Part shown: piece by piece, positions 205 to 20,882 of the stretch
Numbering within the stretch: position 1 is the first letter of the stretch
Layout of the letters: the number at the start of each line of letters is the position of its first letter
DNA from: a virus
Direction: 5' to 3' (one strand)
Length of the DNA stretch: 23,283 nt
Virus record (IMG/VR): IMGVR_UViG_3300048009_000033
Coordinates: 1 to 23,283 of that record
The notes under the pieces: model-generated
Databases searched by the model: none
Told to the model about the DNA's origin: nothing
The model's input: the letters and a program-made list of their open reading frames with translations, nothing else
Program-made: the position numbers and the translations under genes

Positions 205-1422
205 ATGTTCACATTTAAGGGTTATGTTACCAAGGCAAAGAATAAGCACTTAGAACATCTAGAGGACCAGATTATAGATGAAGGTTCTAAGGGTGGTCAA
301 AATGCTGTAAACTTCTTAGTTGCAATTCGCAACATGCTAGCCGGTTCATCTAAAAAGAAAGTCAATATGACTGTCAAGTGGGACGGTGCTCCCGCTGTTA
401 TATGTGGTATCAATCCAGAAAACGGCAAATTCTTTGTCGGCACAAAATCAGTATTCAATAGAACACCTAAAATCAATTACACACCAGCAGATATAAACAG
501 AAATCATGGTGGTGTATTAGCAGATAAACTACAAATCTGTTTAAAATATTTAAGAAGAATTGTTACAAACGGAGTATATCAAGGTGATTTACTCTACACA
601 GTAGGCGACCTAAAAGGTGCAAACATAGATGGTGAATCTATGATTACATTTACACCAAACACAATCACATATGCAGTACCATCTAATTCAAGTATAGGTA
701 ACAGAATTAGAAAAGCAAAATTGGGTATCGTATTTCATACAAAGTATTCAGGTAAAACTATGCAAGATTTAAGAGCAGGTTTTGGTACAGTTACAGGTGG
801 TGGAGGTTCAAATGTATTTCTTGCTTCAGCAGGATATAAAGACACATCAGGTGTTTCAAAGTTTACCACAACAGAATTAAATAGCTTTAACGCTTTAATT
901 AGAATGGCACAAGGTTCATTAGGTAAAGGTAAAGTATTTTTAGATATGTTATCTGAAAGGTCATCAGACCCAATATCTGTTGCATATAGATTAAAAACAT
1001 TTTTTAACTCAGTCATAAGAAATAGTACAGGTGATATGGGTCAAGTTAAAACTTTACAAAAACAATTTAGAGATTACTATTCTAATATATTAGACACAGA
1101 GATTAGTGCAAGAAAAACACAAGCCGGCAAACAAAAATTTATAAATGCAAAAACAGAAGGTCTAAGATTTATTGATAGAAATTCATCATCCTTATATTTT
1201 GCAATTGCAAGTCATATTAGTTTAGGTAGAGCAAAGAATTTTTTAGTAAGTAAACTATCACAAATACAAAGCATAGGACATTTTCTAAAAACACCAAACG
1301 GTTATAGAGTAACAGCACCTGAAGGTTTTGTTGCTGTAGATAAAGTTGCTGGCGCAGTTAAACTCGTAGACAGATTAGAATTTAGTCGTGCAAACTTTCA
1401 GATGGATAAAAATTGGGGATAA
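205..1422 (+). CDS. DUF6267-type phage protein with ligase-like motifs
   Basis: The 405-residue protein belongs to a family I recognise from T4-like cyanophages (DUF6267). Its function is not established. The sequence carries marks of the covalent nucleotidyltransferase (ligase/capping) superfamily: K58-W-D-G as motif I, G127-D-L-L-Y as a motif III-like strand, L173-G-I-V-F-H-T-K, and near the C-terminus E373-G-F-V-A-V followed 13 residues later by K386-L as motifs IV and V. The N-terminus MFTFKGYVTKA resembles the MKTFKxY tag seen on other proteins here, although the usual Glu at position 10 is Lys. An I-D-E/G site follows at residues 24-27. GGAG just upstream supports this start. It heads a run of close-packed genes. 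A ligase-like nucleic-acid or nucleotide role is inference. Confidence 0.8.
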   Translation: MFTFKGYVTKAKNKHLEHLEDQIIDEGSKGGQNAVNFLVAIRNMLAGSSKKKVNMTVKWDGAPAVICGINPENGKFFVGTKSVFNRTPKINYTPADINRNHGGVLADKLQICLKYLRRIVTNGVYQGDLLYTVGDLKGANIDGESMITFTPNTITYAVPSNSSIGNRIRKAKLGIVFHTKYSGKTMQDLRAGFGTVTGGGGSNVFLASAGYKDTSGVSKFTTTELNSFNALIRMAQGSLGKGKVFLDMLSERSSDPISVAYRLKTFFNSVIRNSTGDMGQVKTLQKQFRDYYSNILDTEISARKTQAGKQKFINAKTEGLRFIDRNSSSLYFAIASHISLGRAKNFLVSKLSQIQSIGHFLKTPNGYRVTAPEGFVAVDKVAGAVKLVDRLEFSRANFQMDKNWG

Positions 1423-2237: not shown

Positions 2238-2837
2238 ATGAAAACATTTAAACAATATATTTTTGCAAAACTAAAAGAGGCAACAATGCCTATGAGAATT
2301 ATTATGTTAGGTGGACCTGGTTCTGGTAAATCTACTTACTCTAAATTCTTAACAAAAGAATATCAAATACCTCATGTGTATACAGGTGATATGATGAGAG
2401 ATTTAGCAAAACAAGATACACCAACAGGCCGTAAAGTAAGAAGTGCATTAGAAAAAGGTGATTATGTAGATACAAAAATTGTATTAGATACACTACAGGC
2501 CAGATTACAAAGAAAAGATACAGAAAAAGGATATGTATTAGATGGTTTTCCTAGAAGTATGGAACAAGTTAAAGAAATGGAAAAAAGAAATATCGGTTAT
2601 GACCATGTTGTATATCTAGATGTTGCAGAAGAAGAAGTCATTAGAAGATTGATGTCTAGAGGTCGTGCAGATGATAAACCAGACATTATAAAAAATAGAA
2701 TTAAAGTTTATAAAAAACAAACACAACCTGTCGTAGATTATTATAAAGACAAACTTATAACTATCAAAGCAAAAGGTGGTGAAGTTATAGAAGACATAGC
2801 CGCAGAAATAATAAGTAAGATAAATGAAAGACTATAA
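2238..2837 (+). CDS. adk: Adenylate kinase with an N-terminal capsid-tag-like extension
   Basis: This is a 199-residue nucleoside monophosphate kinase of the adenylate kinase type, which interconverts ATP+AMP and 2 ADP. The P-loop GGPGSGKST covers residues 25-33, followed by the NMP-binding TGDMMR, the DGFPRS motif, and a short LID with RGRADDKPD and a downstream Arg. The first 16 residues are extra compared with normal adenylate kinases. They begin MKTFKQYI, like the T4 internal-protein tag, and end L-K-E/A, a fit to the gp21 cleavage site, just before the enzyme core. An alternative ATG at 2286 has a better ribosome site (AGAGG, 5-base spacing) and would give an untagged enzyme. The far start has no clear ribosome site. 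The stop overlaps the next gene by 14 bases. Confidence 0.9.
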   Translation: MKTFKQYIFAKLKEATMPMRIIMLGGPGSGKSTYSKFLTKEYQIPHVYTGDMMRDLAKQDTPTGRKVRSALEKGDYVDTKIVLDTLQARLQRKDTEKGYVLDGFPRSMEQVKEMEKRNIGYDHVVYLDVAEEEVIRRLMSRGRADDKPDIIKNRIKVYKKQTQPVVDYYKDKLITIKAKGGEVIEDIAAEIISKINERL

Positions 2838-3507
2838 AACATTTTTAATAACAGAAGGAGTTTATGACCCTGGTATATTTAAGGCATACTTTCTTGCAGG
2901 TGGACCAGGTTCTGGTAAAACATTTGTTACAGCAAATGCATTTGCAGGTACAGGATTAAAATTAGTTAATTCTGATGCCGTATTTGAAAGATATTTAAAA
3001 CAAGCTGGATTGTCTATGAAAATGCCAGAATCAGAAGCTGAAATTAGAGATGAAATAAGAACTAGAGCAAAAGCAAAAACATCTGGTAAATTAGATTTAT
3101 ATATTAAGGGCAGATTAGGTTTAGTTGTTGATGGTACAGGTAGAGATTTTGAATTGATATCTAGACAACAAAGACTATTAAAATTTATAGGGTATGATAC
3201 TCAAATGATATTTGTAAATACCAGTTTAGATGTTGCATTAGAAAGAAATAAAAAAAGAGAAAGAACGGTACCTGAATATATTGCTACAAAGAATTGGAAT
3301 ACAGTACAATCTAATATGGGTAAGTTTCATAAATTATTTGGATATCAAAACATGCATATAATAGATAACAATAGAAGTGAAAAAGAATTAGTAACAGTAA
3401 CACTAAATAAAGCTGCTAAGGTAGTTAGAAGTACAATGAGCAGACCTTTGGGTTATATAGCTAAACAATGGGTCAACAAAGAACTACAACTAAAGAAAAG
3501 AACATGA
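2824..3507 (+). CDS. P-loop kinase (zeta-toxin/AAA-type)
   Basis: The 227-residue protein has a Walker A motif GGPGSGKT at residues 26-33, NSDAVFE shortly after, and a Walker B-like strand LVVDGTGRD. This order is typical of small-molecule or polynucleotide kinases of the zeta-toxin/PNK type. The substrate cannot be told from sequence. The N-terminus MKDYKTFLITEG resembles the T4 internal-protein tag and contains I-T-E/G at residues 9-12, a near-ideal prohead-protease site that would release the kinase core. It overlaps the adenylate kinase gene by 14 bases and the following gene by an ATGA, so translation is probably coupled. Confidence 0.8.
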   Translation: MKDYKTFLITEGVYDPGIFKAYFLAGGPGSGKTFVTANAFAGTGLKLVNSDAVFERYLKQAGLSMKMPESEAEIRDEIRTRAKAKTSGKLDLYIKGRLGLVVDGTGRDFELISRQQRLLKFIGYDTQMIFVNTSLDVALERNKKRERTVPEYIATKNWNTVQSNMGKFHKLFGYQNMHIIDNNRSEKELVTVTLNKAAKVVRSTMSRPLGYIAKQWVNKELQLKKRT

Positions 3508-6137
3508 TAGACTTTCTTAAAAAATTTAAAGACTTTATATCTACAGGTAAAGAAGTGGAGATTAAAGAATCAATTATTGATATACCAAGGCGTATCTATG
3601 CACCAGGTGTATTTGATGACGCTGATACTGAAAATCCAAAACTTAAACAGGAAGTCTTAGATATTATTAATACACAATTAAAAGAGTTTGAAAAACTTGC
3701 ACCTGTCGTAAGATACTCTTTAATAGGTTCTATACTTACAAAAAGATATCGTAATGACGCTGATTTAGATATCAATGTATTGTTTGATGTGCCAAAAGAT
3801 GAACAAGAAGCAAAAAGATTAGAGTGGTCTAAAAAATTAAAAGACATAAATGGTAAAAATATACCAGGCACAGAACATCCTGTAAACTATTATGTAATGA
3901 CTGACCCTGAAGTAGAAAGAAAAAATAATGAAATGGCAGATGGTGTATTTGATATAGAAAATAATACATGGGAAAGAAAACCAGAGCCTGATACATTTGA
4001 ACCAGAAAAATATGAAGCAGATTTTCAAAAGAAAGTCAGAGAGTTGGATGTAATTAAAGGTGAACTAAAAAGAGATTTAATAGATTACGATGAACTTAGC
4101 AATCTAACAAACAATGATGTTCTTAATCTACAAGATAGAGTAAATAAAAAACTAGAAGAAATAGAAGATAGTATTAGAAGATTTAAAGAGATAGGTGATA
4201 CACTAACTACAGATAGAAGGGATGCTTTTGCTACTGATATGACACCTGATGAAATCAGAGAATATGGTAAGAAGAATAAATTGCCTAAAAATGTTATCTA
4301 TAAAATGTTAGAAAAATACCATTATCTAAAATTCTATAAAAAATTAAAAGAGATTTTAGAAGATGATAAAATAGATGATAAAGAAATTGCAGATTTACAA
4401 AAGCATGAAGAACTCGAATTAAAAGAAGCAGTAAATAAAACTTTAGTATTAACATTTGGTAGATTTAATCCACCTACAATAGGTCATGAAAAATTAATTA
4501 AGAAAGTGGCAAGTACACCTGGAGATATAAGACATATCTATTTAAGTAAATCACAAGATGTACAAAAGAACCCATTAACAGTAACACAAAAGATTAAATT
4601 CATGAGAGACATGTTTCCACAATATAAAAACATGTTTAGAATACCATCATCAAATATGGTCTTAGATATTATGGTACAAGAGTATAAAAAAGGATTTGAA
4701 AATATAACTATGGTTGTAGGTTCTGATAGAGTAAGAGAATTTGAAACACTTATTAAAAGATATAATGGTGTAAAAATGAGAAGTGGGTTTTACGATTTTA
4801 AAAATATCAAAGTTATTAGTGCTGGTGAAAGAGACCCAGACGCTGAAGGCGCTTCAGGTATGAGTGCAAGTAAAATGAGAGCTGCTGTTAAGAATGATGA
4901 CTTTGAAACATTCGCAAAAGGATTACCACCATCATATAAAGGGGCTCAAGAATTATTTAAAGCAGTTGCAACAGGTATGAGAGTATCTTATAATAGAAAG
5001 AAATTAGCTGCTTCAGTAAATCATCATATGGGTTATAACTTTAAACCTATTGCTAGTTTAGAAGAATTTGAACAAAATCAAATAAGAGATATGTATATCA
5101 GAGAAATGATATTTAACCTAAACGATAAAGTTAATTATGTTAAAGAAGATGTACAAGGTGTAGTTAAAAGAAGAGGTACAAATTATATAGTAATTGAAGA
5201 CAACAATAACAATTTACATAAATGTTGGATTTGGGATTGTGTACCTGTATCATCAAACAGGGAAATAGAAATGAGAGAATATGACCTAAATGTAGATTAT
5301 GGTTTTGAGGCAGTTAATGAAAAGACTGATGATGGCCATACAAAAAACATAGAACAGGACAGAGATGTCAAGAAGAAAAAAGGAACACAACCTAAAAAAT
5401 ATTATAAAGGTTTAAGTAAAGATGTCAAAGATAAAAGGGCAGACCATTTCAAATCACAAGATACTACAAAACCTGGATATAAACCAGCGCCTGGTGATGA
5501 TAAAGCAAAAACTAAACCATCCAAACATACACAAAAATATAAAAAGATGTTTGGTGAATTTAAGAAAGATTTAAAAGACGCTTGTTGGTCAGGCTATAAA
5601 CAAGTAGGTATGAAAACTAAAAATGGTAAACAAGTACCTAACTGTGTGCCTGAATCATATGAGATAGGCCAAGACTATGCTAATCATACAAAAGAAGTAA
5701 CACCAGGAGAAACACCAACAGAGAAACCTGTTGATTCTAAATTAAGAACTCCTGAGAATACTATAAATAAGGATAGTAGAAAGGATAAATATAAGATGAA
5801 AACATTCAAAGAGTATGCAGAAGATGATATATATGCACATCTGGACGAAGAACTAGAGATTACAGAGGCAGAATATCAAGGAAAGAAAGTAAAACTCAAC
5901 GACCCAATAAGAGGTGGTAGTAAGAAGTTTTATGTATATGTTAAGAATGATAAAGGTAATGTGGTCAAAGTATCTTTTGGTGATACAACAGGATTGAGTA
6001 TCAAGAGAGATGACCCAGAGAGAAGAAAAAGTTTCAGAGCAAGACACAAGTGTGATACTGCTAAAGATAAAACAACAGCAAGATACTGGTCATGCAGAAT
6101 GTGGACTGCTAAAACTAAAGTATCTGATTTAGACTAG
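3504..6137 (+). CDS. Multidomain nucleotidyltransferase fusion with DUF5872-type C-terminus
   Basis: The start chosen is ATG 3504, in an ATGA overlap with the upstream stop; a further ATG at 3468 would add 12 residues. The 877-residue product is a mosaic. Residues about 23-150 are a minimal Pol-beta-like nucleotidyltransferase (IGS followed by a DADLD acidic motif). A helical linker follows. Residues 309-480 are an HxGH-type nucleotidyltransferase (T325-I-G-H328 and S454-A-S-K-M-R459). A small beta module contains RGTNYIVIED. A Lys-rich region with PAPGDD and TKPSKHTQKYKKMFGE leads to DACWSGY (692-698) and CVPE. The end is a DUF5872-type module with RHKC and YWSCRMW. Modules are preceded by I-K-E/S (20-23), L-K-E/A (306-309) and I-T-E/A (786-789). 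Substrates are unknown. The last module also seems to have its own promoter and start at 5796. Confidence 0.85.
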   Translation: MIDFLKKFKDFISTGKEVEIKESIIDIPRRIYAPGVFDDADTENPKLKQEVLDIINTQLKEFEKLAPVVRYSLIGSILTKRYRNDADLDINVLFDVPKDEQEAKRLEWSKKLKDINGKNIPGTEHPVNYYVMTDPEVERKNNEMADGVFDIENNTWERKPEPDTFEPEKYEADFQKKVRELDVIKGELKRDLIDYDELSNLTNNDVLNLQDRVNKKLEEIEDSIRRFKEIGDTLTTDRRDAFATDMTPDEIREYGKKNKLPKNVIYKMLEKYHYLKFYKKLKEILEDDKIDDKEIADLQKHEELELKEAVNKTLVLTFGRFNPPTIGHEKLIKKVASTPGDIRHIYLSKSQDVQKNPLTVTQKIKFMRDMFPQYKNMFRIPSSNMVLDIMVQEYKKGFENITMVVGSDRVREFETLIKRYNGVKMRSGFYDFKNIKVISAGERDPDAEGASGMSASKMRAAVKNDDFETFAKGLPPSYKGAQELFKAVATGMRVSYNRKKLAASVNHHMGYNFKPIASLEEFEQNQIRDMYIREMIFNLNDKVNYVKEDVQGVVKRRGTNYIVIEDNNNNLHKCWIWDCVPVSSNREIEMREYDLNVDYGFEAVNEKTDDGHTKNIEQDRDVKKKKGTQPKKYYKGLSKDVKDKRADHFKSQDTTKPGYKPAPGDDKAKTKPSKHTQKYKKMFGEFKKDLKDACWSGYKQVGMKTKNGKQVPNCVPESYEIGQDYANHTKEVTPGETPTEKPVDSKLRTPENTINKDSRKDKYKMKTFKEYAEDDIYAHLDEELEITEAEYQGKKVKLNDPIRGGSKKFYVYVKNDKGNVVKVSFGDTTGLSIKRDDPERRKSFRARHKCDTAKDKTTARYWSCRMWTAKTKVSDLD
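5762..5769 (+). promoter_or_regulatory. Late promoter box inside the nucleotidyltransferase gene
   Basis: A perfect TATAAATA lies within coding sequence, 26 bases before an in-frame ATG (5796) that begins a typical MKTFKEY tag. The predicted RNA start near 5775 gives a leader of about 21 nt that carries AAGGA at 5781-5785. This arrangement suggests independent late expression of the C-terminal module. Confidence 0.55.
5796..6137 (+). CDS. Internal-start product: tagged DUF5872-type protein
   Basis: This in-frame internal start would give 113 residues, the C-terminal part of the 877-residue fusion. It starts with MKTFKEYAEDD, the same kind of tag that opens separate genes in this window, and has I-T-E/A at residues 22-25 right before the DUF5872-type module (GKKVKLNDP, RHKC, YWSCRMW). 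AAGGA lies 10 bases before the ATG and a late promoter box lies 26 bases before it. The most likely history is fusion of a once separate tagged gene to the end of its neighbour, with its own expression signals kept. Whether both forms are made cannot be told here. Confidence 0.5.
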   Translation: MKTFKEYAEDDIYAHLDEELEITEAEYQGKKVKLNDPIRGGSKKFYVYVKNDKGNVVKVSFGDTTGLSIKRDDPERRKSFRARHKCDTAKDKTTARYWSCRMWTAKTKVSDLD

Positions 6138-14586: not shown

Positions 14587-15069
14587 ATGACAACACTAGA
14601 TTTAAACAAAATAGTGTTAGTATCCTCTATAGTATGCCTTTCCTCGATTAATACTAGCACAGCAAGTGAATTAGTTCACAAGTTTGGTAACCCTGCTTTT
14701 AGTAAAGAGGGTTATTCCCAGCATGCCTTATCAATAGAGCAGCTACAATACACTAGAGAAAATGACAGAATTAAAGATGAGAAGTCTGCTTTATCTCAAG
14801 CAGAAAGAGATGAAAAAAACAAAACAATCAATAAATTTATTGCCAATGTAGAAAGTCGTATCTATGCTAACTTATCAAAACAATTAGTTGATAATATGTT
14901 TGGAACGAGTTGTACAGAAAATTGTGCAACAAGTGGAACGGCAGAAGTAGAAGGTTCTCAAATTTATTGGGTGAAAGATACTTCAACAGATATAATAACA
15001 TTGACAATAACTGACCCAACAGGAACAGTATCATCATTGACTGTACCGGTTGGAGATTTTATTTTTTAG
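14587..15069 (+). CDS. csgF: CsgF-like curli assembly protein
   Basis: The 160-residue protein starts with a Sec-type signal sequence (residues 1 to about 26, ending TSTAS before ELVHKF). The mature start LVHKFGNPAFS matches the CsgF signature FxNPxF, and the C-terminal end LTITDPTGTVSSLTVP matches the family's final beta strands. In E. coli, CsgF sits at the mouth of the CsgG pore, its N-terminal segment lining the channel, and couples secretion to fibre nucleation. This copy is slightly longer than E. coli CsgF and has two extra Cys (TSCTENC). It directly precedes csgG, nine bases apart, and its ATG lies at the predicted +1 of the late promoter. Confidence 0.8.
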   Translation: MTTLDLNKIVLVSSIVCLSSINTSTASELVHKFGNPAFSKEGYSQHALSIEQLQYTRENDRIKDEKSALSQAERDEKNKTINKFIANVESRIYANLSKQLVDNMFGTSCTENCATSGTAEVEGSQIYWVKDTSTDIITLTITDPTGTVSSLTVPVGDFIF

Positions 15070-15077
15070 GATAAACT

Positions 15078-15893
15078 ATGAGCTGGACTTATGTATTAAT
15101 ATTTTTAATGGGCATGTGCCTGTCAGGTTGTTCGACAACAATGGGCAATTATGTTGAGATGTCTCAAAAACCATTTATACAAAATCCTGCTACATCAGAT
15201 TTATTAAGAGGTATACCAGATTTAGACCAAGAAAAAATAACTATTGCAATTTATGATTTTCCTGATAGAACAGGACAGAGAAAACCTAGTGATAAGTTTT
15301 CTCAATTAAGTACGGCAGTTACACAAGGACCTGAAGTATACTTAATACAAGCACTTAAACTGGTAAGTGATGGTGATTGGTTTACAGTAGTAGAAAGAAA
15401 AGGATTAGGCAACCTAGTCAAAGAAAGACAATTGGTTAGGTCTACAAGAGAATTATATGATGGTGAAAAAAATGCAGGTACAGTATTAAAACCACTAATA
15501 TTTGCAGGTCTTATTATAGAGGGGGGTGTTGTCAGTTACGATTCAAATACCGTAAGTGGTGGCGAAGGTGCAAGAGTATTCGGTATTGGAGCTTCCAAAC
15601 AATATCGAACAGACCAAGTAACTGTTGCTTTAAGAGTAATAGCAGTACAGACAGGAGAAGTATTGATGACAATATCAGCAAGTAAAACTATTGCAAGTTA
15701 TCAAACTGGTGCTGATGTATTTAGATTCTTTGATTTAAGGACTAAAGCATTAGAGATAGAAACAGGTGCAGCTATTAATGAACCAACAGATTATGCTATT
15801 CGTTCTGCCATAGAATATGGCGTTTTAAAAATGGTTGAAAAGGGCGAACAGTTAGACTATTGGAAGTTTAAAAAATGGAGAGTAAAAGAATGA
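15078..15893 (+). CDS. csgG: CsgG outer-membrane secretion channel lipoprotein
   Basis: The 271-residue protein has a lipoprotein signal with lipobox L15-S-G-C18. The body matches CsgG throughout: IAIYDFPDRTGQRKP, LSTAVTQGPEVYLIQAL, WFTVVERKGLGNLVKER, LIIEGGVVSYDSN, GGEGARVFGIGASKQYRTD and ADVFRFFD. CsgG forms a nonameric pore through which unfolded curli subunits leave the periplasm. The length equals that of cellular CsgG. The stretch that forms the pore constriction in E. coli (Tyr51, Asn55, Phe56) reads SDKFSQL here, so the pore-lining residues differ. AGGA precedes the ATG. The stop overlaps the next gene (ATGA). Neither CsgE nor CsgC is visible in the window. Confidence 0.92.
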   Translation: MSWTYVLIFLMGMCLSGCSTTMGNYVEMSQKPFIQNPATSDLLRGIPDLDQEKITIAIYDFPDRTGQRKPSDKFSQLSTAVTQGPEVYLIQALKLVSDGDWFTVVERKGLGNLVKERQLVRSTRELYDGEKNAGTVLKPLIFAGLIIEGGVVSYDSNTVSGGEGARVFGIGASKQYRTDQVTVALRVIAVQTGEVLMTISASKTIASYQTGADVFRFFDLRTKALEIETGAAINEPTDYAIRSAIEYGVLKMVEKGEQLDYWKFKKWRVKE

Positions 15894-16573
15894 AAAAAAT
15901 AATCACTATATTATCTGTGATTTTTATTTCGTTATCAGTACATGCAAATGACATTTATATAAACCAATCTGGTGCTACATTAGATTTAGATGTAACACAA
16001 GATGGTCAGAATAACACAGTAGGTAATGCGACTACAGCCTCTAGTGTTATTGGTGCAACAACAAATTTGGCAATTACACAAATAGGTGATAGTAATGTTA
16101 TGACCTTTGATGTCAATGGTGCAACCTATACAGGCACATTTTCTGTAACAGGTGATAGTAACAATATAGACTTTAATTGTGATAGTGCAGGAAATAATAG
16201 TTCTTGTGGTACAGCAACAGCTTCTATTGTTTGGGTAGGTTCATCTAACGATATTGACATAGACATTGGGGAAACATCATCTGCTACTTCAGCAACAGTT
16301 GGAATTACTGGTGCAAGTGGTAGTGATAGTAACACAATCTTAGGTACAATAGATGGTAACTCAGCAATACTAACATTATCAGTTAATGGAGATACAAATA
16401 ACTTCTTAGTTGATATAGATGGTAATGGTGATAATGTTGGACATACTTACATTCATACACACACAGGTTCTATCGCAGATGTAGATATAACTCAAAGTGG
16501 TATCTATGATAACATGATTACACTAACAACATCTGGAGATAATCACGATATAGATATAATACAACGAGATTAA
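15890..16573 (+). CDS. Secreted curlin-repeat protein (CsgA/CsgB-like)
   Basis: The start is ATG 15890 in an ATGA overlap with csgG, with GGAG nine bases upstream. The 227-residue product has a clean signal peptide (MKKIITILSVIFISLSVHA, cut after residue 19). The mature part is rich in Asn, Asp, Thr, Ser and Gly and carries curlin-type units such as IYINQSGATLDLDVTQDG, LAITQIGDSNVMTF, VTGDSNNIDF and VDITQSGIYDNMI. Curlin units form an amyloid beta-solenoid after export through CsgG. The repeats are more degenerate than in E. coli CsgA and two Cys (CDSAGNNSSC) are present. It is the likely fibre subunit or nucleator of this system. Confidence 0.8.
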   Translation: MKKIITILSVIFISLSVHANDIYINQSGATLDLDVTQDGQNNTVGNATTASSVIGATTNLAITQIGDSNVMTFDVNGATYTGTFSVTGDSNNIDFNCDSAGNNSSCGTATASIVWVGSSNDIDIDIGETSSATSATVGITGASGSDSNTILGTIDGNSAILTLSVNGDTNNFLVDIDGNGDNVGHTYIHTHTGSIADVDITQSGIYDNMITLTTSGDNHDIDIIQRD

Positions 16574-16574
16574 A

Positions 16575-17672
16575 ATGAAAAAGTTTTTTATTATGATGTT
16601 GTTGTTTAGCACTAACACTTTTGGTGCAAGTATCGGAGATGTCATTTTACAAGAAGGTAATGGTGTCGTTGAAAGAAAAGAAGGAGATGAGTTTAAGTCT
16701 GAAAAAGATTTAGATATTTTTTCTTACGACACCGTTAGAACCGGAAAAGGTAAAACTGCCATTGAGTTTATTGATGATACTAGAGTAGATGTAACAGAAC
16801 ATTCTAAACTAATAATAGATGAATTTGTTTATGACCCAAATTCAAAAACAGGTGCCTTATCATTAAAGGCATCCTTAGGTACTGTTAGGTATGCTTCAGG
16901 TCAAATTGCAAAAAACTCAAAACAAAATGTAAAGATAAAAACACCAACAGCAACAATCGGTGTTCGTGGAACAGACTTTACAATGACAATAGATGAAGTC
17001 GGAAGTTCTACAATTATATTATTACCTTCATGTGATACAAATGGTAATTGTTATGTAGGAGAAATAGATGTAACATCGGATGCTGGTCAAGTAATTTTAA
17101 ATCAGGCATTTCAAGCCACAGTTGTAGAAACAGTTGCAAGTAATCCTATGAAACCAGTCATTCTAGATATAGATGAAAACTTAATAGGTAACTTATTAAT
17201 CATATCAAAACCAAGAGAGATAGAAGAGCAACAAAGTAAAGAGGATTTTATAAAAGTTGCCAATGCACTAGATATTGATTTTTTAGAATTTGATGATTTG
17301 GAAGTGGATTATCTAGAAGAAGAAACTGAAAATTGGGCAACAGGATTAGACATAGATTTCTTAGAACAAAATTTCTTAGTAAACATATTAGACCAAATTA
17401 ATGCTGAATTAGCAAAGTCAATGAGAAATGAATTTGACAAAGGTCGAGATGGTATAAGATTAGGTAAAGACCCTGAAACAGGTATCACTTTATTAGATGA
17501 AGACCCAAATTGGTTATGGAGTAGAGAAGACGCCTCTGGAAATTATATTGAATTAAGATTAGATAAAGAATATAATTATGTTTTAAATGTTGTACAAGGT
17601 GATTATGAAATAATAGATTACGAAATAGGGGGAGTAGAAAATGCGATTACAATTATTCAGTCTGGTCAGTAG
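16575..17672 (+). CDS. Secreted FecR-domain protein
   Basis: The 365-residue protein has a signal peptide (MKKFFIMMLLFSTNTFGA) and a FecR domain from about 25 to 160. That domain includes YDTVRTGKGKTAIEFIDDTRV, here noted as TVRTGKGKTAIEF plus VDVTEHSKLIIDEF, and T123-PTATIGVRGTDF135, the most conserved stretch of the family. A long acidic region follows (LEFDDLEVDYLEEETE). The last residues, NAITIIQSGQ, look like half of a curlin unit. FecR domains of this secreted type often stand beside CHASE2 proteins in bacteria, and a CHASE2 cyclase is encoded two genes downstream, so a shared sensing role is plausible. Its final 32 bases overlap the next gene in another frame. Confidence 0.85.
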   Translation: MKKFFIMMLLFSTNTFGASIGDVILQEGNGVVERKEGDEFKSEKDLDIFSYDTVRTGKGKTAIEFIDDTRVDVTEHSKLIIDEFVYDPNSKTGALSLKASLGTVRYASGQIAKNSKQNVKIKTPTATIGVRGTDFTMTIDEVGSSTIILLPSCDTNGNCYVGEIDVTSDAGQVILNQAFQATVVETVASNPMKPVILDIDENLIGNLLIISKPREIEEQQSKEDFIKVANALDIDFLEFDDLEVDYLEEETENWATGLDIDFLEQNFLVNILDQINAELAKSMRNEFDKGRDGIRLGKDPETGITLLDEDPNWLWSREDASGNYIELRLDKEYNYVLNVVQGDYEIIDYEIGGVENAITIIQSGQ

Positions 17673-19038
17673 TCTGCTATTTTTTAGTACCTCTGTATTG
17701 GCTGATACTGCCTTTATATATTATAAAAATAGTGGAGATTATAATACTAGTTCTCAATACACAAATTTAAAATCTGAATTAGAAGATTTAGGTTATACTG
17801 TATCTAGTAGTACAAGTGGTACAGTTAGTTCTACTGATGTATCAGGCAAAGATTTAGTCATTGATATCACAGGTTCTTCAAACTGTGGTAGTAACTGTAA
17901 GACAGTTTATGACAATTATGTATCTGGTGGCGGTGAATTGCTTATAGTAGGTAGTAATGGTGCAACCAACAGAAATAGTAACATAGAACAATTAATTGAA
18001 AGTAAGATGAGTGTGGGTAGTTTTACACAAGCTGGTGGTTGTAATGCTTGTTATTATTCAGTAAGAAAAGGTGATTATGCAAGTAGCACTACTAGTGAAA
18101 ATACTTTACCAGGTTCAGACAAATATATGTATAATGTAACTAACGGTACAACTGTAGCCGCTAACTCATCTTCTAATAATAATATTCCTATTATGCACAA
18201 ATGGGATTACGGTTCAAATGGTGGCTCAGTTTATGTAACATTTGGTTATGGACAGTTTCTTTCAACTCACACATACGCAGCTAACATGGATGCTTTGTTG
18301 ATGTCAATAATGATAGAAGAAGGATTATACACATCAACAGTACAATCTGGTATAACTTCAAATCAAACAACAGAATTTAATGCAGCTAGAAATAAATCTA
18401 TAAGTGGTAATCAGTTATACATTACACAAACAGGAAATAATAACACACTAAATATATTACAAGATGGTGATGATAATTTAATTATAGGTTCAGATTTAAC
18501 TTCAACAGCTGTAATAACTGGCGATAATAATGCTTTAGATTTAGACCAAATAGGTAACGATAATATTTTAGGACTAGATATAATAGGTTCATCAAACAAT
18601 GTTGCAGTTACACAAAATCAAGACCAGAGAGCAATATTAGATATATTGGGTTCAACAAATAATGTAGACTTAGACCAATCAGCAATTAATTATGTAGGTG
18701 AACACTATATGAATGTTAAGATAGTTGGTAGTAATAATAATGTTGATGTAGACCAGACAGAAACAGGAGATAAAAAATTGTGGTTAGACATAGATAGTTC
18801 TAATAATGTTGCCGTAGACCAAAAAGGTACAGGTAATCACTTTTTAGATATCACACTAACTGATAGTCATAGTGTAGATGTAACACAAGACGGAAGTGGT
18901 AATCACAATGCAACAATAAATTTAAGTGGTAATAGTTCTAGTGTTACTTTGACACAGGATAGTTCAACAGACCAAAATTATTACCTTGAACAAAATTGTA
19001 ATAGTGCAAGTTGTTCAGCAACAGTAACACAAAACTAA
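17641..19038 (+). CDS. Amidotransferase-like domain fused to curlin repeats, secreted
   Basis: The 465-residue protein starts with a signal peptide (MRLQLFSLVSSLLFFSTSVLA). Residues about 22-245 look like a Rossmann-type class I amidotransferase-like domain: an N-terminal strand FIYYKN, a helix ending LEDLGYTV, DLVIDITGSS, YVSGGGELLIVGSNG and GGSVYVTFGYGQF. No obvious catalytic Cys-His pair can be placed, so it may be a binding rather than an enzymatic domain. Residues about 253-465 are curlin-like repeats with N-N-V-x-V-D-Q units. GGGGGAG gives a very strong ribosome site within the end of the FecR gene. A surface-exposed fibre, cap or adhesin exported through CsgG is the best guess. Confidence 0.75.
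   Translation: MRLQLFSLVSSLLFFSTSVLADTAFIYYKNSGDYNTSSQYTNLKSELEDLGYTVSSSTSGTVSSTDVSGKDLVIDITGSSNCGSNCKTVYDNYVSGGGELLIVGSNGATNRNSNIEQLIESKMSVGSFTQAGGCNACYYSVRKGDYASSTTSENTLPGSDKYMYNVTNGTTVAANSSSNNNIPIMHKWDYGSNGGSVYVTFGYGQFLSTHTYAANMDALLMSIMIEEGLYTSTVQSGITSNQTTEFNAARNKSISGNQLYITQTGNNNTLNILQDGDDNLIIGSDLTSTAVITGDNNALDLDQIGNDNILGLDIIGSSNNVAVTQNQDQRAILDILGSTNNVDLDQSAINYVGEHYMNVKIVGSNNNVDVDQTETGDKKLWLDIDSSNNVAVDQKGTGNHFLDITLTDSHSVDVTQDGSGNHNATINLSGNSSSVTLTQDSSTDQNYYLEQNCNSASCSATVTQN
18400..19035 (+). repeat. Curlin-like repeat array (protein level)
   Basis: About nine to ten units of 19-26 residues, each with a core such as GSSNNVAVTQ, GSTNNVDLDQ, GSNNNVDVDQ, DSSNNVAVDQ and DSHSVDVTQ. Spacing varies and the DNA itself is diverged, so this is an old protein repeat, not a recent tandem duplication. 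The regular N-N-V-x-V-x-Q spacing predicts a stacked beta-solenoid. Confidence 0.8.
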
Positions 19039-20882
19039 TGAAGAAATTTATAACACATTGGACATTCGCATTTGTAACTTTAGTTGCATTAACATTCTAT
19101 GGTTTACAAGAACCATTTGTCAAAGAAATATTAAAGTTAAAATCTTTCGATATGTTAATACAACAAGAAGAACAAAGTTTATCAAAAGACATTGGTATAG
19201 TTACAATAGATGAAAAGTCTATAGAAAAGTATGGACAATGGCCGTGGTCAAGAGATAAAATGGCAGAGATAGTTCTTAAACTAAGACAAGCTGGTGCTGG
19301 TGTAATTGTTTTACCTATATTATTTTCAGAAGAAGATAGATTTGGTACAGATGAATTTTTTGCAAGAGTATTGACTAATAATGGTGTAGTCATTGCACAA
19401 ACAGGTACATCACAAACAAATAAAAATGCCGTGCCAAGAGGGGTTGCAAAAATAGGCAACCCATTACCTTATCTATTTGAATGGGAAGGTATGTTAGGAC
19501 CAATACCTGAGTTAGGAAGTAGTGCTGATGGTGTAGGTGTTATAAACACAGCACCAGAAATAGATGGTGTCGTAAGAAGAATTCCATTGATAATGAGAAT
19601 AGGTGAGGCAACATATCCAACAATTGGTTTAGAAGTTATCAGAGTTGCAACAGGCAATCCTAGTTATCAAGTTAAGGCAGGAGATGGTGGTGTTCAAGCA
19701 GTAAGAGTTCCAGGTTTTCCAATTATAGAAACAGACCCTAATGCTAGAATATGGTTGAGATGGAATAAAACATTTGAAACAATATCAGCTTCAGAAGATG
19801 ACTTTTCAAAATTTAATGGTCGTACTGTAATTGTAGGAACAACAGCAGAAGGATTAAACAGTATCATTGCAACACCTGTTGGTGAAAAATATGATTACAT
19901 GTTATCTGCTTCTACACTACAAACTATGATAGATGGCAAACAAATAAACAGATATGATATTAGTTCATTTTTAGAATTAGTTTTATCTGTTATATTAGGA
20001 CTTACTGTTATACTAATATGCAGATTTACACCTTACTGGTTTATAGGGTTTAGTTTAATAATTTTATATAGTGCTAGTATTTTTGGCTCAAAATTCTTAT
20101 TTGATAAATACTTAATATTATCAGATGTTAGTTGGATAATTATTGTAATTACCATAGTAGGTATGCACAGTATATTCAATAGATTTATATTAGAGTTTAG
20201 ACTAAAACAACAAATACGAAAACAATTTGAAACATATCTAGACCCAAGACAAGTTGCAGAATTACAAAAAGACCCTAGTAAATTAAAATTAGGTGGTGAA
20301 AGGAGAGAAATGAGTTTTCTTTTTATGGACATAGTAGGATTTACTCCGATATCAGAACACTACAAAAACAATGATGACCCTGAAGGACTTGTTGAAGTTA
20401 TCAACGACTATCTTAATCGCATGACAAAAATTGTACTCAATAATGGAGGTACGGTTGACAAATATATGGGAGACTGTATAATGGCTTTTTGGAATGCACC
20501 ACTTGATTGTGAAGACCACGCCGAGATGGCAGTTAAGACTGCTCAGGAATGTGCAGAAGAAACAAAAAGATTAAAACAAGATTTCAAAGAAAGAGGACTA
20601 CCCGATATCAATATAGGTTCTGGTGTTAATACAGGAACATGTATCGTAGGTAATATGGGTAGTGATACAAGATTTGATTATTCAGTAATTGGGGATGCTG
20701 TTAATCTAGCCGCAAGACTAGAGGCAGCTACAAGAAATTATAAAGATGAAAATGGTGATGTACTTTCTACTCTATATTCTTCATACACAATGGAGAAACT
20801 AAAGAATATAGAATCAGTAGAAATAGATAAAATTAAAGTTAAAGGAAAGGAGGAACTAATAACAATATATACGCCGAAATAG
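19038..20882 (+). CDS. CHASE2-domain class III adenylate/guanylate cyclase
   Basis: The ATG at 19038 overlaps the preceding stop (TAATG); the product has 614 residues. One membrane helix (about 8-22) leads into a periplasmic CHASE2 domain (about 35-310; GIVTIDEKSIEKYGQWPWSR, VLPILFSEEDRFG, DGVVRRIPLIMR). Three membrane helices (about 312-385), a short helical link (KQFETYLDPRQVAELQ) and a cytoplasmic class III cyclase (about 420-614) follow. Both metal-binding Asp (D431 in FMDIVGF, D479 in DKYMGD), Lys475, and the transition-state residues N556 and R560 in VNLAAR are present, so the enzyme looks active. Lys475 with Ser549 in DYSVIGD favours ATP as substrate, though GTP is not excluded. It closes the curli operon and probably converts an envelope signal into cyclic nucleotide. 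Confidence 0.92.
   Translation: MKKFITHWTFAFVTLVALTFYGLQEPFVKEILKLKSFDMLIQQEEQSLSKDIGIVTIDEKSIEKYGQWPWSRDKMAEIVLKLRQAGAGVIVLPILFSEEDRFGTDEFFARVLTNNGVVIAQTGTSQTNKNAVPRGVAKIGNPLPYLFEWEGMLGPIPELGSSADGVGVINTAPEIDGVVRRIPLIMRIGEATYPTIGLEVIRVATGNPSYQVKAGDGGVQAVRVPGFPIIETDPNARIWLRWNKTFETISASEDDFSKFNGRTVIVGTTAEGLNSIIATPVGEKYDYMLSASTLQTMIDGKQINRYDISSFLELVLSVILGLTVILICRFTPYWFIGFSLIILYSASIFGSKFLFDKYLILSDVSWIIIVITIVGMHSIFNRFILEFRLKQQIRKQFETYLDPRQVAELQKDPSKLKLGGERREMSFLFMDIVGFTPISEHYKNNDDPEGLVEVINDYLNRMTKIVLNNGGTVDKYMGDCIMAFWNAPLDCEDHAEMAVKTAQECAEETKRLKQDFKERGLPDINIGSGVNTGTCIVGNMGSDTRFDYSVIGDAVNLAARLEAATRNYKDENGDVLSTLYSSYTMEKLKNIESVEIDKIKVKGKEELITIYTPK
20455..20482 (+). promoter_or_regulatory. Consensus sigma70 promoter inside the cyclase gene
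   Basis: TTGACA (20455-20460) and TATAAT (20477-20482) are 16 bases apart, a full consensus match. It lies in the codons for the conserved DKYMGD region, so coincidence is possible. If active it would start RNA near 20489 and feed the hairpin leader and small gene at 20900-21189 early in infection. Confidence 0.35.

What the first reader, a model, noticed from the sequence alone, without database searches (positions are those of the whole stretch)
205..1422. Ligase-like motif set in a DUF6267-type protein
KWDG (58-61), GDLLY (127-131), EGFV (373-376) and K386, with 13 residues from the motif IV Glu to the motif V Lys as I recall for T4 RNA ligase 1, suggest a divergent covalent nucleotidyltransferase. 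Beside it lie an adenylate kinase, a PNK/zeta-like kinase and two nucleotidyltransferase domains, so this could be an RNA-repair or nucleotide-salvage set, possibly injected with the DNA.
Basis: partly seen in the sequence, partly recalled or inferred. Interest (0 to 1): 0.5.

Follow-up and report, generated by a model that had tools for sequence, protein, structure and literature searches.

The report
Hidden ligase-like enzyme in marine phages
A phage protein family of unknown function has the conserved active-site residues and predicted shape of enzymes that join broken RNA or DNA strands, and most of the cyanobacterial and SAR11 phages checked that carry it have no recognisable DNA ligase of their own.

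Summary
The finding holds up. Window 205-1422 encodes a 405-aa DUF6267 protein (Pfam E 8.5e-120). K58 (154/154), E373 and K386 (151/151) are invariant in a non-redundant set. All 20 phage records found without using the motifs carry KxDG and EGxV...K (S-PM2's in two pieces). K81, D128 and H178 fill the other ligase motifs.

AlphaFold models (long form pLDDT 86.5, short form 93.0) resemble polynucleotide ligases: 47 and 50 of the 50 VIA-align rows shown, up to Z 7.8 and 9.0. No Foldseek match is significant, but its first 21 short-form rows are ligases.

DUF6267 is thus a divergent covalent nucleotidyltransferase with a mostly helical insertion between motifs IIIa and IV, most likely a polynucleotide ligase. 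RNA is favoured because no OB domain is seen and kinase and nucleotidyltransferase genes lie beside it. A replication ligase is the main rival: 17 of 20 DUF6267 records lack a PF01068 ligase over cut-off, and a 2010 review left open an unrecognised ligase in cyanomyoviruses. Injection is not supported for this protein. Catalysis is untested.

The parts
205..1422 (+). DUF6267 protein, 405 aa: predicted covalent nucleotidyltransferase (ligase-like)
   Evidence: model m46dbe239e062, fold comparison
247..267 (+). N-terminal HLEHLED (residues 15-21), highly conserved; role unknown
   Evidence: H15 151/152, H18 152/152, E20 153/153, D21 146/153
376..387 (+). motif I, KWDG 58-61; K58 is the predicted AMP-accepting lysine
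   Evidence: K58, D60, G61 154/154; 67/67 in short forms; follows strand 54-57 in the model
445..447 (+). motif Ia candidate, K81
   Evidence: 154/154; K119 is invariant in the Rnl1 alignment A7, its role as motif Ia is recalled
583..597 (+). motif III candidate, GDLLY 127-131 (D128 in place of Glu), in strand 124-132
   Evidence: D128 153/154
658..672 (+). NTITY 152-156, invariant N152 and Y156; role unknown
   Evidence: 154/154 each
736..741 (+). motif IIIa candidate, H178-T179, in strand 173-182
   Evidence: 154/154; His195 is motif IIIa in Yasminevirus RLIG1 (PMC11494293, passages)
772..1260 (+). insertion (about residues 190-352, helices from 222 on) between motifs IIIa and IV; shorter in the roughly 290-320-aa forms
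   Evidence: secondary structure
1321..1332 (+). motif IV, EGFV 373-376
   Evidence: E373, G374, V376 151/151
1360..1374 (+). motif V, KLVDR 386-390 (K386; R390)
   Evidence: K386 151/151, R390 148/151
2238..2837 (+). adenylate kinase with an MKTFKQY...LKEA N-terminus
   Evidence: PF00406 E 6e-43; sequence
2824..3507 (+). P-loop kinase, zeta/PNK-like, possible 5'-end kinase partner
   Evidence: 58% identical to the HTVC008M protein two genes after its DUF6267
3669..3860 (+). Pol-beta-type nucleotidyltransferase domain (residues 68-131 of the 889-aa protein)
   Evidence: PF01909 E 1.2e-5
4440..4847 (+). HIGH-type, NMN-adenylyltransferase-like domain (GRFNPPTIGH; about residues 325-460 of the 889-aa protein)
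   Evidence: PF01467 3.6e-4; TIGR01526 2.8e-6, far below its cut-off

Best explanation
DUF6267 is a divergent family of the covalent nucleotidyltransferase superfamily (polynucleotide ligases and capping enzymes). Shown by computation: the conserved motif set, the predicted fold, and an inserted, mostly helical subdomain between motifs IIIa and IV with no C-terminal OB domain. Inferred: K58 attacks ATP to form lysyl-AMP; D60, K81, D128, H178, E373 and K386 hold the nucleotide and metal; AMP passes to a 5'-phosphate end; and a 3'-OH attack seals the strand. The most likely substrate is broken or nicked RNA, in the manner of Rnl1, Rnl2 and RLIG1. In this window the P-loop kinase would supply 5'-phosphate ends and the Pol-beta-type domain would refill lost nucleotides. 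Sub-confidences: superfamily fold and active site 0.92; ligase activity on either substrate 0.72 (the figure below); if it is a ligase, RNA rather than DNA 0.55.
For: Motif residues are invariant in 154 non-redundant members, and motif I Lys, IV Glu and V Lys in 67 short forms (67/67, 65/65, 65/65). All 20 records found by tblastn or profile rather than motif have KxDG and EGxV...K.V.R. In the long-form model the strands sit where ligase motifs require: K58 after strand 54-57, D128 in 124-132, H178 in 173-182, E373 just before 375-379, K386 in 383-387. VIA-align: of the 50 rows shown, 47 are ligases for the long form (best Z 7.8) and 50 for the short form (N. gruberi RNA ligase Z 9.0, 181 residues, 3.6 A; T4 Rnl1 Z 8.0, 155 residues, 3.5 A) (NHEJ complexes are counted as their ligase IV chain, inferred from the residue range). 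Foldseek's first 21 short-form rows are all ligases. hhalign against Rnl1 finds one match, motif IV-V in register (E 0.014); Rnl1 against Rnl2, known relatives, gives only 0.0024. Yasminevirus RLIG1, a proven RNA ligase, has a His as motif IIIa and 13 residues from its motif IV Glu to its motif V Lys (passages). SAR11 phage HTVC008M keeps DUF6267, kinase and HIGH protein close together, with one unexamined ORF between DUF6267 and the kinase.
Against: No Foldseek match reaches E 0.001; the long form's best ligase ranks only 36th, and the short form's first two rows are archaeal DNA ligases, not RNA ligases. The VIA tool warns that Z under 8 can be unspecific. hhalign probabilities are about 3% or less, and A5 against Rnl2 aligns out of register. 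Motif III is Asp, not Glu, and the second motif V lysine (KIK in Rnl1) is absent (V388). The HTVC008M HIGH protein lacks the Pol-beta part, so that partner is not constant. The tools return no coordinates, so I could not check that the conserved residues meet in one pocket. I found no activity data for any member.
Confidence: 0.72

Rival explanations
1. It is the missing replication DNA ligase of marine T4-like phages, sealing Okazaki fragments in place of gp30.
For: Of 20 DUF6267 records (19 named phages and one IMG/VR contig) 17 lack a PF01068 match over the cut-off; T4, KVP40 and Aeh1, which lack DUF6267, all have one; Fisher p 0.011, confounded by shared ancestry. The gene lies within a few kb of gp41/primase-helicase and MazG in 10 of 13 annotated cyanophage loci and after gp41 in HTVC008M. 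The first two short-form Foldseek rows are archaeal DNA ligases. A 2010 review reports no g30 homologue in cyanomyoviruses; it names unidentified distant homologues as one possibility and absence as the more probable (PMC2984593, passages). A 2021 survey says most jumbo phages of its subgroup 2.1 (P-SSM2 is its prototype) lack any known DNA ligase but carry a lone ligase DNA-binding domain (PMC7824862, passages).
Against: EniLVp02, S-CRM01 and DLP6 carry both DUF6267 and a PF01068 ligase. No OB domain is seen. RNA ligases have the highest VIA-align Z. In S-CREM1, ACG-2014f and S-T4 the gene lies among small, mostly unknown genes. Host LigA could serve instead.
Confidence: 0.25
2. It is a covalent nucleotidyltransferase that does not ligate: it caps RNA ends or transfers NMP to a protein or small molecule.
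For: Capping enzymes share the fold and appear in the short-form Foldseek list (ranks 38, 41, 48). The conserved HLEHLED and the insertion suggest an unusual acceptor.
Against: Capping enzymes need an OB domain with motif VI (recalled), not seen here. RNA ligases score highest.
Confidence: 0.15
3. The lysine motifs are a chance or vestigial resemblance and the protein has no nucleotidyl transfer activity.
For: No sequence profile other than DUF6267 matches strongly, and Foldseek is not significant.
Against: Strict conservation of the catalytic set over members 25-88% identical to P0001 and consistent fold matches.
Confidence: 0.06

Closest known systems
T4 RNA ligase 1 (Rnl1, PF09511)
   Same: KxDG motif I, Lys in the motif Ia position, EG[YF]V then Lys 13 residues on, fold match Z 8.0 for the short form
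   Different: Rnl1 has Glu in motif III, KxK in motif V and a C-terminal helical domain (the last recalled); DUF6267 has Asp, KxV, an insertion between IIIa and IV and no C-terminal domain. No Pfam PF09511 match
Naegleria gruberi RNA ligase (nick-sealing; PDB 5cot, 6vt3)
   Same: top structural match for both models, Z 7.8 and 9.0
   Different: 8-12% identity over about 180 aligned residues; its N-terminal part is mostly unmatched (aligned range 143-339 in most rows)
RLIG1 / C12orf29 family (human and Yasminevirus RNA ligases)
   Same: KxDG, His as motif IIIa, 13 residues from the motif IV Glu to the motif V Lys, no separate RNA-binding domain (PMC11494293, passages)
   Different: Arg in motif Ia and Glu in motif III; no direct sequence or structure comparison was made here
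T4 DNA ligase gp30 (PF01068) and other ATP-dependent DNA ligases
   Same: nucleotidyltransferase core; T4 gp30 (6dt1) Z 5.7 for the long form; archaeal DNA ligases lead the short-form Foldseek list without significance
   Different: DNA ligases have an OB domain and a DNA-binding domain (recalled), not seen in DUF6267; no PF01068 match
Pfam PF19782 DUF6267 / PHROG 455
   Same: this protein is a member
   Different: both are listed as unknown function; PHROG 455's 764-position profile also matches residues 287-624 of window protein 3468-6137

Membership tests
PF19782 DUF6267 | profile match over the gathering score | tested here: met
   401 bits against cut-off 27, profile 1-376 of 376
covalent nucleotidyltransferase superfamily | motif I KxDG with the nucleophilic lysine, conserved | tested here: met
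   154/154; 20 of 20 records found without the motif
covalent nucleotidyltransferase superfamily | motif IV EG.V and motif V Lys, conserved | tested here: met
   151/151 each, 3 of 154 rows gapped there
covalent nucleotidyltransferase superfamily | motif III Glu | tested here: not met
   Asp in 153/154, Glu in 1; another acid at the same place, so read as a variant
covalent nucleotidyltransferase superfamily | ligase nucleotidyltransferase fold | tested here: met
   VIA-align 47/50 and 50/50 rows shown are ligases, Z up to 7.8 and 9.0, on predicted models. Caution: Foldseek has no E <= 0.001 and Z under 8 is common for unmatched models
covalent nucleotidyltransferase superfamily | covalent lysyl-NMP intermediate | not testable with these tools
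   needs a bench assay
T4 Rnl1 family (PF09511) | PF09511 profile match | tested here: not met
   no PF09511 among families with E <= 1; weak in-register hhalign match, E 0.014
T4 Rnl1 family (PF09511) | motif V KxK (K240, K242) | tested here: not met
   K386-L-V388; K240 and K242 invariant in A7
T4 Rnl2 family (PF09414) | PF09414 profile match | tested here: not met
   none at E <= 1; hhalign E 0.11 (motif IV in register) and 0.37 (out of register)
ATP-dependent DNA ligase (PF01068) | PF01068 profile match | tested here: not met
   none at E <= 1
ATP-dependent DNA ligase (PF01068) | C-terminal OB domain with motif VI | tested here: not met
   only 19 residues follow K386, most of them in helix 390-399
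RNA repair set (ligase, 5' kinase/3' phosphatase, Pol-beta NTase) | partner genes beside the ligase | tested here: inconclusive
   kinase relatives in 80 of 345 loci, relatives of the Pol-beta-bearing first third of the 889-aa protein in 70 of 345, flanks unequal; absent from the HTVC008M HIGH protein; no RlaP family among Pfam matches at E <= 1

The most novel reading that the evidence does not exclude
DUF6267 is the unrecognised ligase of marine T4-like phages, and takes its adenylate from NAD+. Its frequent partner, a HIGH-type NMN-adenylyltransferase-like domain (motif found fused in 6 of 345 loci and in a separate ORF downstream in 174 of 345), would remake NAD+ from the released NMN, giving a self-recycling ligase unlike any I know of. 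The conserved N-terminal HLEHLED segment would then hold the NMN half.
Probability: 0.06. Interest if true: 0.88.

Novelty: new variant of a known kind. Interest (0 to 1): 0.62.

Why it matters
It would give a function to a Pfam family labelled unknown that is found in at least 471 of 50,697 phage records, mostly cyanophages. It makes an open question testable: a 2010 review asked whether cyanomyoviruses, which lack recognisable gp30, have an unidentified distant homologue, and thought it the less likely case (PMC2984593, passages). If the substrate is RNA, it would instead point to RNA repair, and so to RNA-cutting defence, in Synechococcus, Prochlorococcus and SAR11 hosts. Either way a 298-aa form with a confident predicted fold is a convenient target for biochemistry and perhaps a new ligase reagent.

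Tried and rejected
Sequence searches against solved structures gave nothing useful: P0001 alone best E 0.64; profile A4 best E 0.0046 to ribosomal eS8 over profile positions 257-343, in the insertion, rejected as a helix/composition match. Foldseek on the long form put unrelated proteins first; a short form with a smaller insertion was folded to get round that and gave ligases first. BFVD gave 14 matches at E <= 0.001, all phage proteins or without a name, some named after a cytidyltransferase or NrdB domain, presumably DUF6267 relatives (not checked); an RNA ligase 2 and an NAD ligase of Marseilleviruses came only at E 0.36. hhalign with Rnl2 gave motif IV in register at E 0.11 for A6 and an out-of-register match for A5.

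NAD-dependent ligase (PF01653) was absent from the 15 records searched. PF04675, the ligase DNA-binding domain (my choice of family for the domain reported as standalone in cyanophages), gave no match over cut-off in 23 records, T4 included, although T4 has gp30, so that search cannot decide. I considered a conserved partner gene just upstream and dropped it: its size differs between phages and the five examined fall in four PHROGs.

Rows dropped: 267 family ORFs reduced to 262 of at least 240 aa, then 154 at under 80% identity; 135 sequences, short forms included, went into A4 and 120 into A5; short forms 67 of 80, requiring an N.H..H anchor and no X, which inflates conservation of those N-terminal residues. 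The patterns of scans 34, 35, 36 and 68 include motif I or Ia, and one of six patterns of scan 8 ends in K58-W59, so K58 and K81 counts there are partly selected; E373, K386, D128 and H178 are not. The 849 ORFs left after the 31 ligases may still hold a few ligases that the pattern misses. In one search the HT regex hit a wrong place in S-CREM1 and S-T4; for these two the motif IIIa His is taken from the alignment. The 20 records are the 15 of L082-L096 plus 5; the 20 of the ligase census are 14 of these 15 (without L093, a 35-kb fragment) plus the contig behind L207, plus the same 5. Not all are independent (P-SSM4 and P-RSM3 are one species) or complete (S-P4 is a partial genome). Neighbour counts are limited by flank length: 254 of 345 loci have at least 1.5 kb downstream. 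Novelty: no paper in the library holds DUF6267, PF19782, phrog_455 or T4-GC 71; most subscription papers are not in it.

Full report
What is there. The window is an entire 23,283-base virus record. Bases 205-1422 encode a 405-aa protein that matches Pfam DUF6267 over the whole profile (E 8.5e-120) and PHROG 455. tblastn finds relatives in 471 of 50,697 phage records, 371 named Synechococcus, 61 Cyanophage and 24 Prochlorococcus. The profile search found none in 14 control genomes. A scan of genome contigs gave 14 loci, 12 of them from MAGs; I did not check whether they are phage contigs.

The motifs. KWDG58-61 and EGFV373-376 each occur once. In an alignment of 262 members reduced to 154 at under 80% identity, K58, D60, G61, P63, G68, K81, N152, Y156, H178 and T179 are 154/154, and E373, G374, V376 and K386 are 151/151, with three rows gapped. 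D128 is 153/154. In 67 short-form members the Lys, Asp and Gly of motif I are 67/67 and the motif IV Glu and motif V Lys 65/65. The scan patterns contained motif I or Ia, so I checked 20 phage records found by tblastn or profile: all carry KxDG and EGxV...K.V.R, in S-PM2 split over two pieces. Chance gives the loose pattern in 56 of 20,000 shuffles; it is in 35 of 880 non-DUF6267 ORFs, of which 31 are ligases I had fetched.

The fold. With 120 sequences AlphaFold2 gave pLDDT 86.5, pTM 0.79. VIA-align's best rows are Naegleria gruberi RNA ligase (Z 7.8, 179 residues, 3.9 A), fungal Trl1 (6.7), T4 Rnl2 (6.7) and T4 Rnl1 (6.6); 47 of the 50 rows shown are ligases, the others SipB and two DnaK entries. 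Foldseek alone did not see it (best ligase rank 36, E 1.8), perhaps because of the insertion. I therefore folded a 298-aa short form from 64 sequences (pLDDT 93.0, pTM 0.86). Foldseek then put ligases in ranks 1 to 21, two archaeal DNA ligases first (best E 0.021, none at or below 0.001), and VIA-align gave ligases in all 50 rows shown, up to Z 9.0 (181 residues, 3.6 A), with T4 Rnl1 at Z 8.0. The tool warns that Z under 8 can be unspecific; the case rests on the uniform identity of the rows together with the motif positions. hhalign against 26 Rnl1 sequences finds one match, motif IV-V in register (E 0.014, probability 3%). The same test between Rnl1 and Rnl2, whose relation is accepted, gives E 0.0024, probability 12%, so weak sequence signal is expected at this distance.

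Differences from known ligases. Motif III carries Asp. The second motif V lysine is absent. Motif IIIa is His, as in Yasminevirus RLIG1 (PMC11494293, passages). A mostly helical block sits between IIIa and IV (195 residues from H178 to E373, 131 in the short form). Only 19 residues follow K386, so there is no OB domain. An HLEHLED segment at the N-terminus is nearly as conserved as the motifs.

Neighbours. Downstream lie a protein of unknown function, an adenylate kinase, a zeta/PNK-like kinase and an 889-aa protein with a Pol-beta-type and a HIGH-type domain. The HIGH domain's best NCBIfam matches are NMN adenylyltransferases, all below cut-off. Over 345 loci a GRFNPPTxGH-type motif is in another ORF downstream in 174, starting within -400 to +200 bases of the DUF6267 end in 89, and fused in 6; L134, whose fused domain Pfam also sees, is not among those 6. 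The SAR11 phage HTVC008M has DUF6267 (50% identity), kinase (58%) and HIGH protein (38% over 287 residues) close together after gp41, with one unexamined ORF (gp128) between DUF6267 and the kinase; its HIGH protein lacks the Pol-beta part. Jumbo phages are reported to pair RNA ligases with polynucleotide kinases and a Pol-beta NTase (PMC7824862, passages), which fits RNA repair. In 10 of 13 annotated cyanophage loci the gene lies close to gp41/primase-helicase and MazG (not in 16, 22, 24), which fits DNA.

Ligase content. Of 20 DUF6267 records (15, 5; 19 named phages and one IMG/VR contig), 3 have PF01068 over cut-off: EniLVp02, S-CRM01 and DLP6; S-CREM1 has a sub-threshold match. PF09414 is over cut-off in 2 of 20 (EniLVp02, S-CREM1), PF09511 in 1 of 15 and PF01653 in 0 of 15. 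The DUF6267-negative T4, KVP40 and Aeh1 have PF01068 and PF09414. Fisher p 0.011 ignores shared ancestry. A 2010 review states that g30 homologues are not found in cyanomyoviruses and that distant homologues may have been missed, though it thought absence more probable (PMC2984593, passages). EniLVp02 has DUF6267 besides DNA ligase, Rnl1-type and Rnl2-type matches, which argues for a separate job there.

Judgement. Superfamily membership 0.92; ligase 0.72; if a ligase, RNA rather than DNA 0.55. It is a new variant of a known kind, not a new kind. Everything biochemical is inference.

Noticed in passing
window 14587-19038: A curli/type VIII secretion cluster: CsgF (E 7.4e-15), CsgG (1.9e-49), FecR (6.6e-10) and a curlin-repeat protein (8.1e-8). 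A published survey reports such operons, and adk, in pelagimyophages (PMC7029224, passages), so the window is probably from a SAR11 phage relative.
   Followed up: partly
window 2238-2290 and 2824-2860; kinase and ADK relatives in L002-L072: Kinase relatives carry a short N-terminus with an [LIM]xE[AGS] site in 60 of 63 distinct cases; ADK relatives start M[KR]x[FYL] in 17 of 26 but have the site in only 3. This resembles the T4 capsid-targeting peptide cut by gp21 (recalled), so the kinase may be packaged and injected.
   Followed up: partly
window 19011-20882: A CHASE2 plus adenylate/guanylate cyclase protein (E 4e-44 and 1e-17) in a phage: a possible cyclic nucleotide signalling gene.
   Followed up: no
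L218, L223, L231, L111, L117, L134: DUF6267 with a C-terminal extension of about 190-314 aa in one ORF of 590-709 aa; in L218 and L134 Pfam sees a cytidylyltransferase-like (HIGH) domain there, and the GRFNPPTxGH-type motif is in L111, L117, L218, L223 and L231.
   Followed up: partly
L082:8013-9792 (S-PM2, NC_006820): The DUF6267 region lies in two frames in this record, while BFVD holds a 591-aa S-PM2 protein (A0A0M6VVW4) that matches nearly the whole model.
   Followed up: no
L259 (Nonlabens xiamenensis contig, 188 kb): A DUF6267 gene in a bacterial isolate assembly; could be a prophage or a co-sequenced phage.
   Followed up: no
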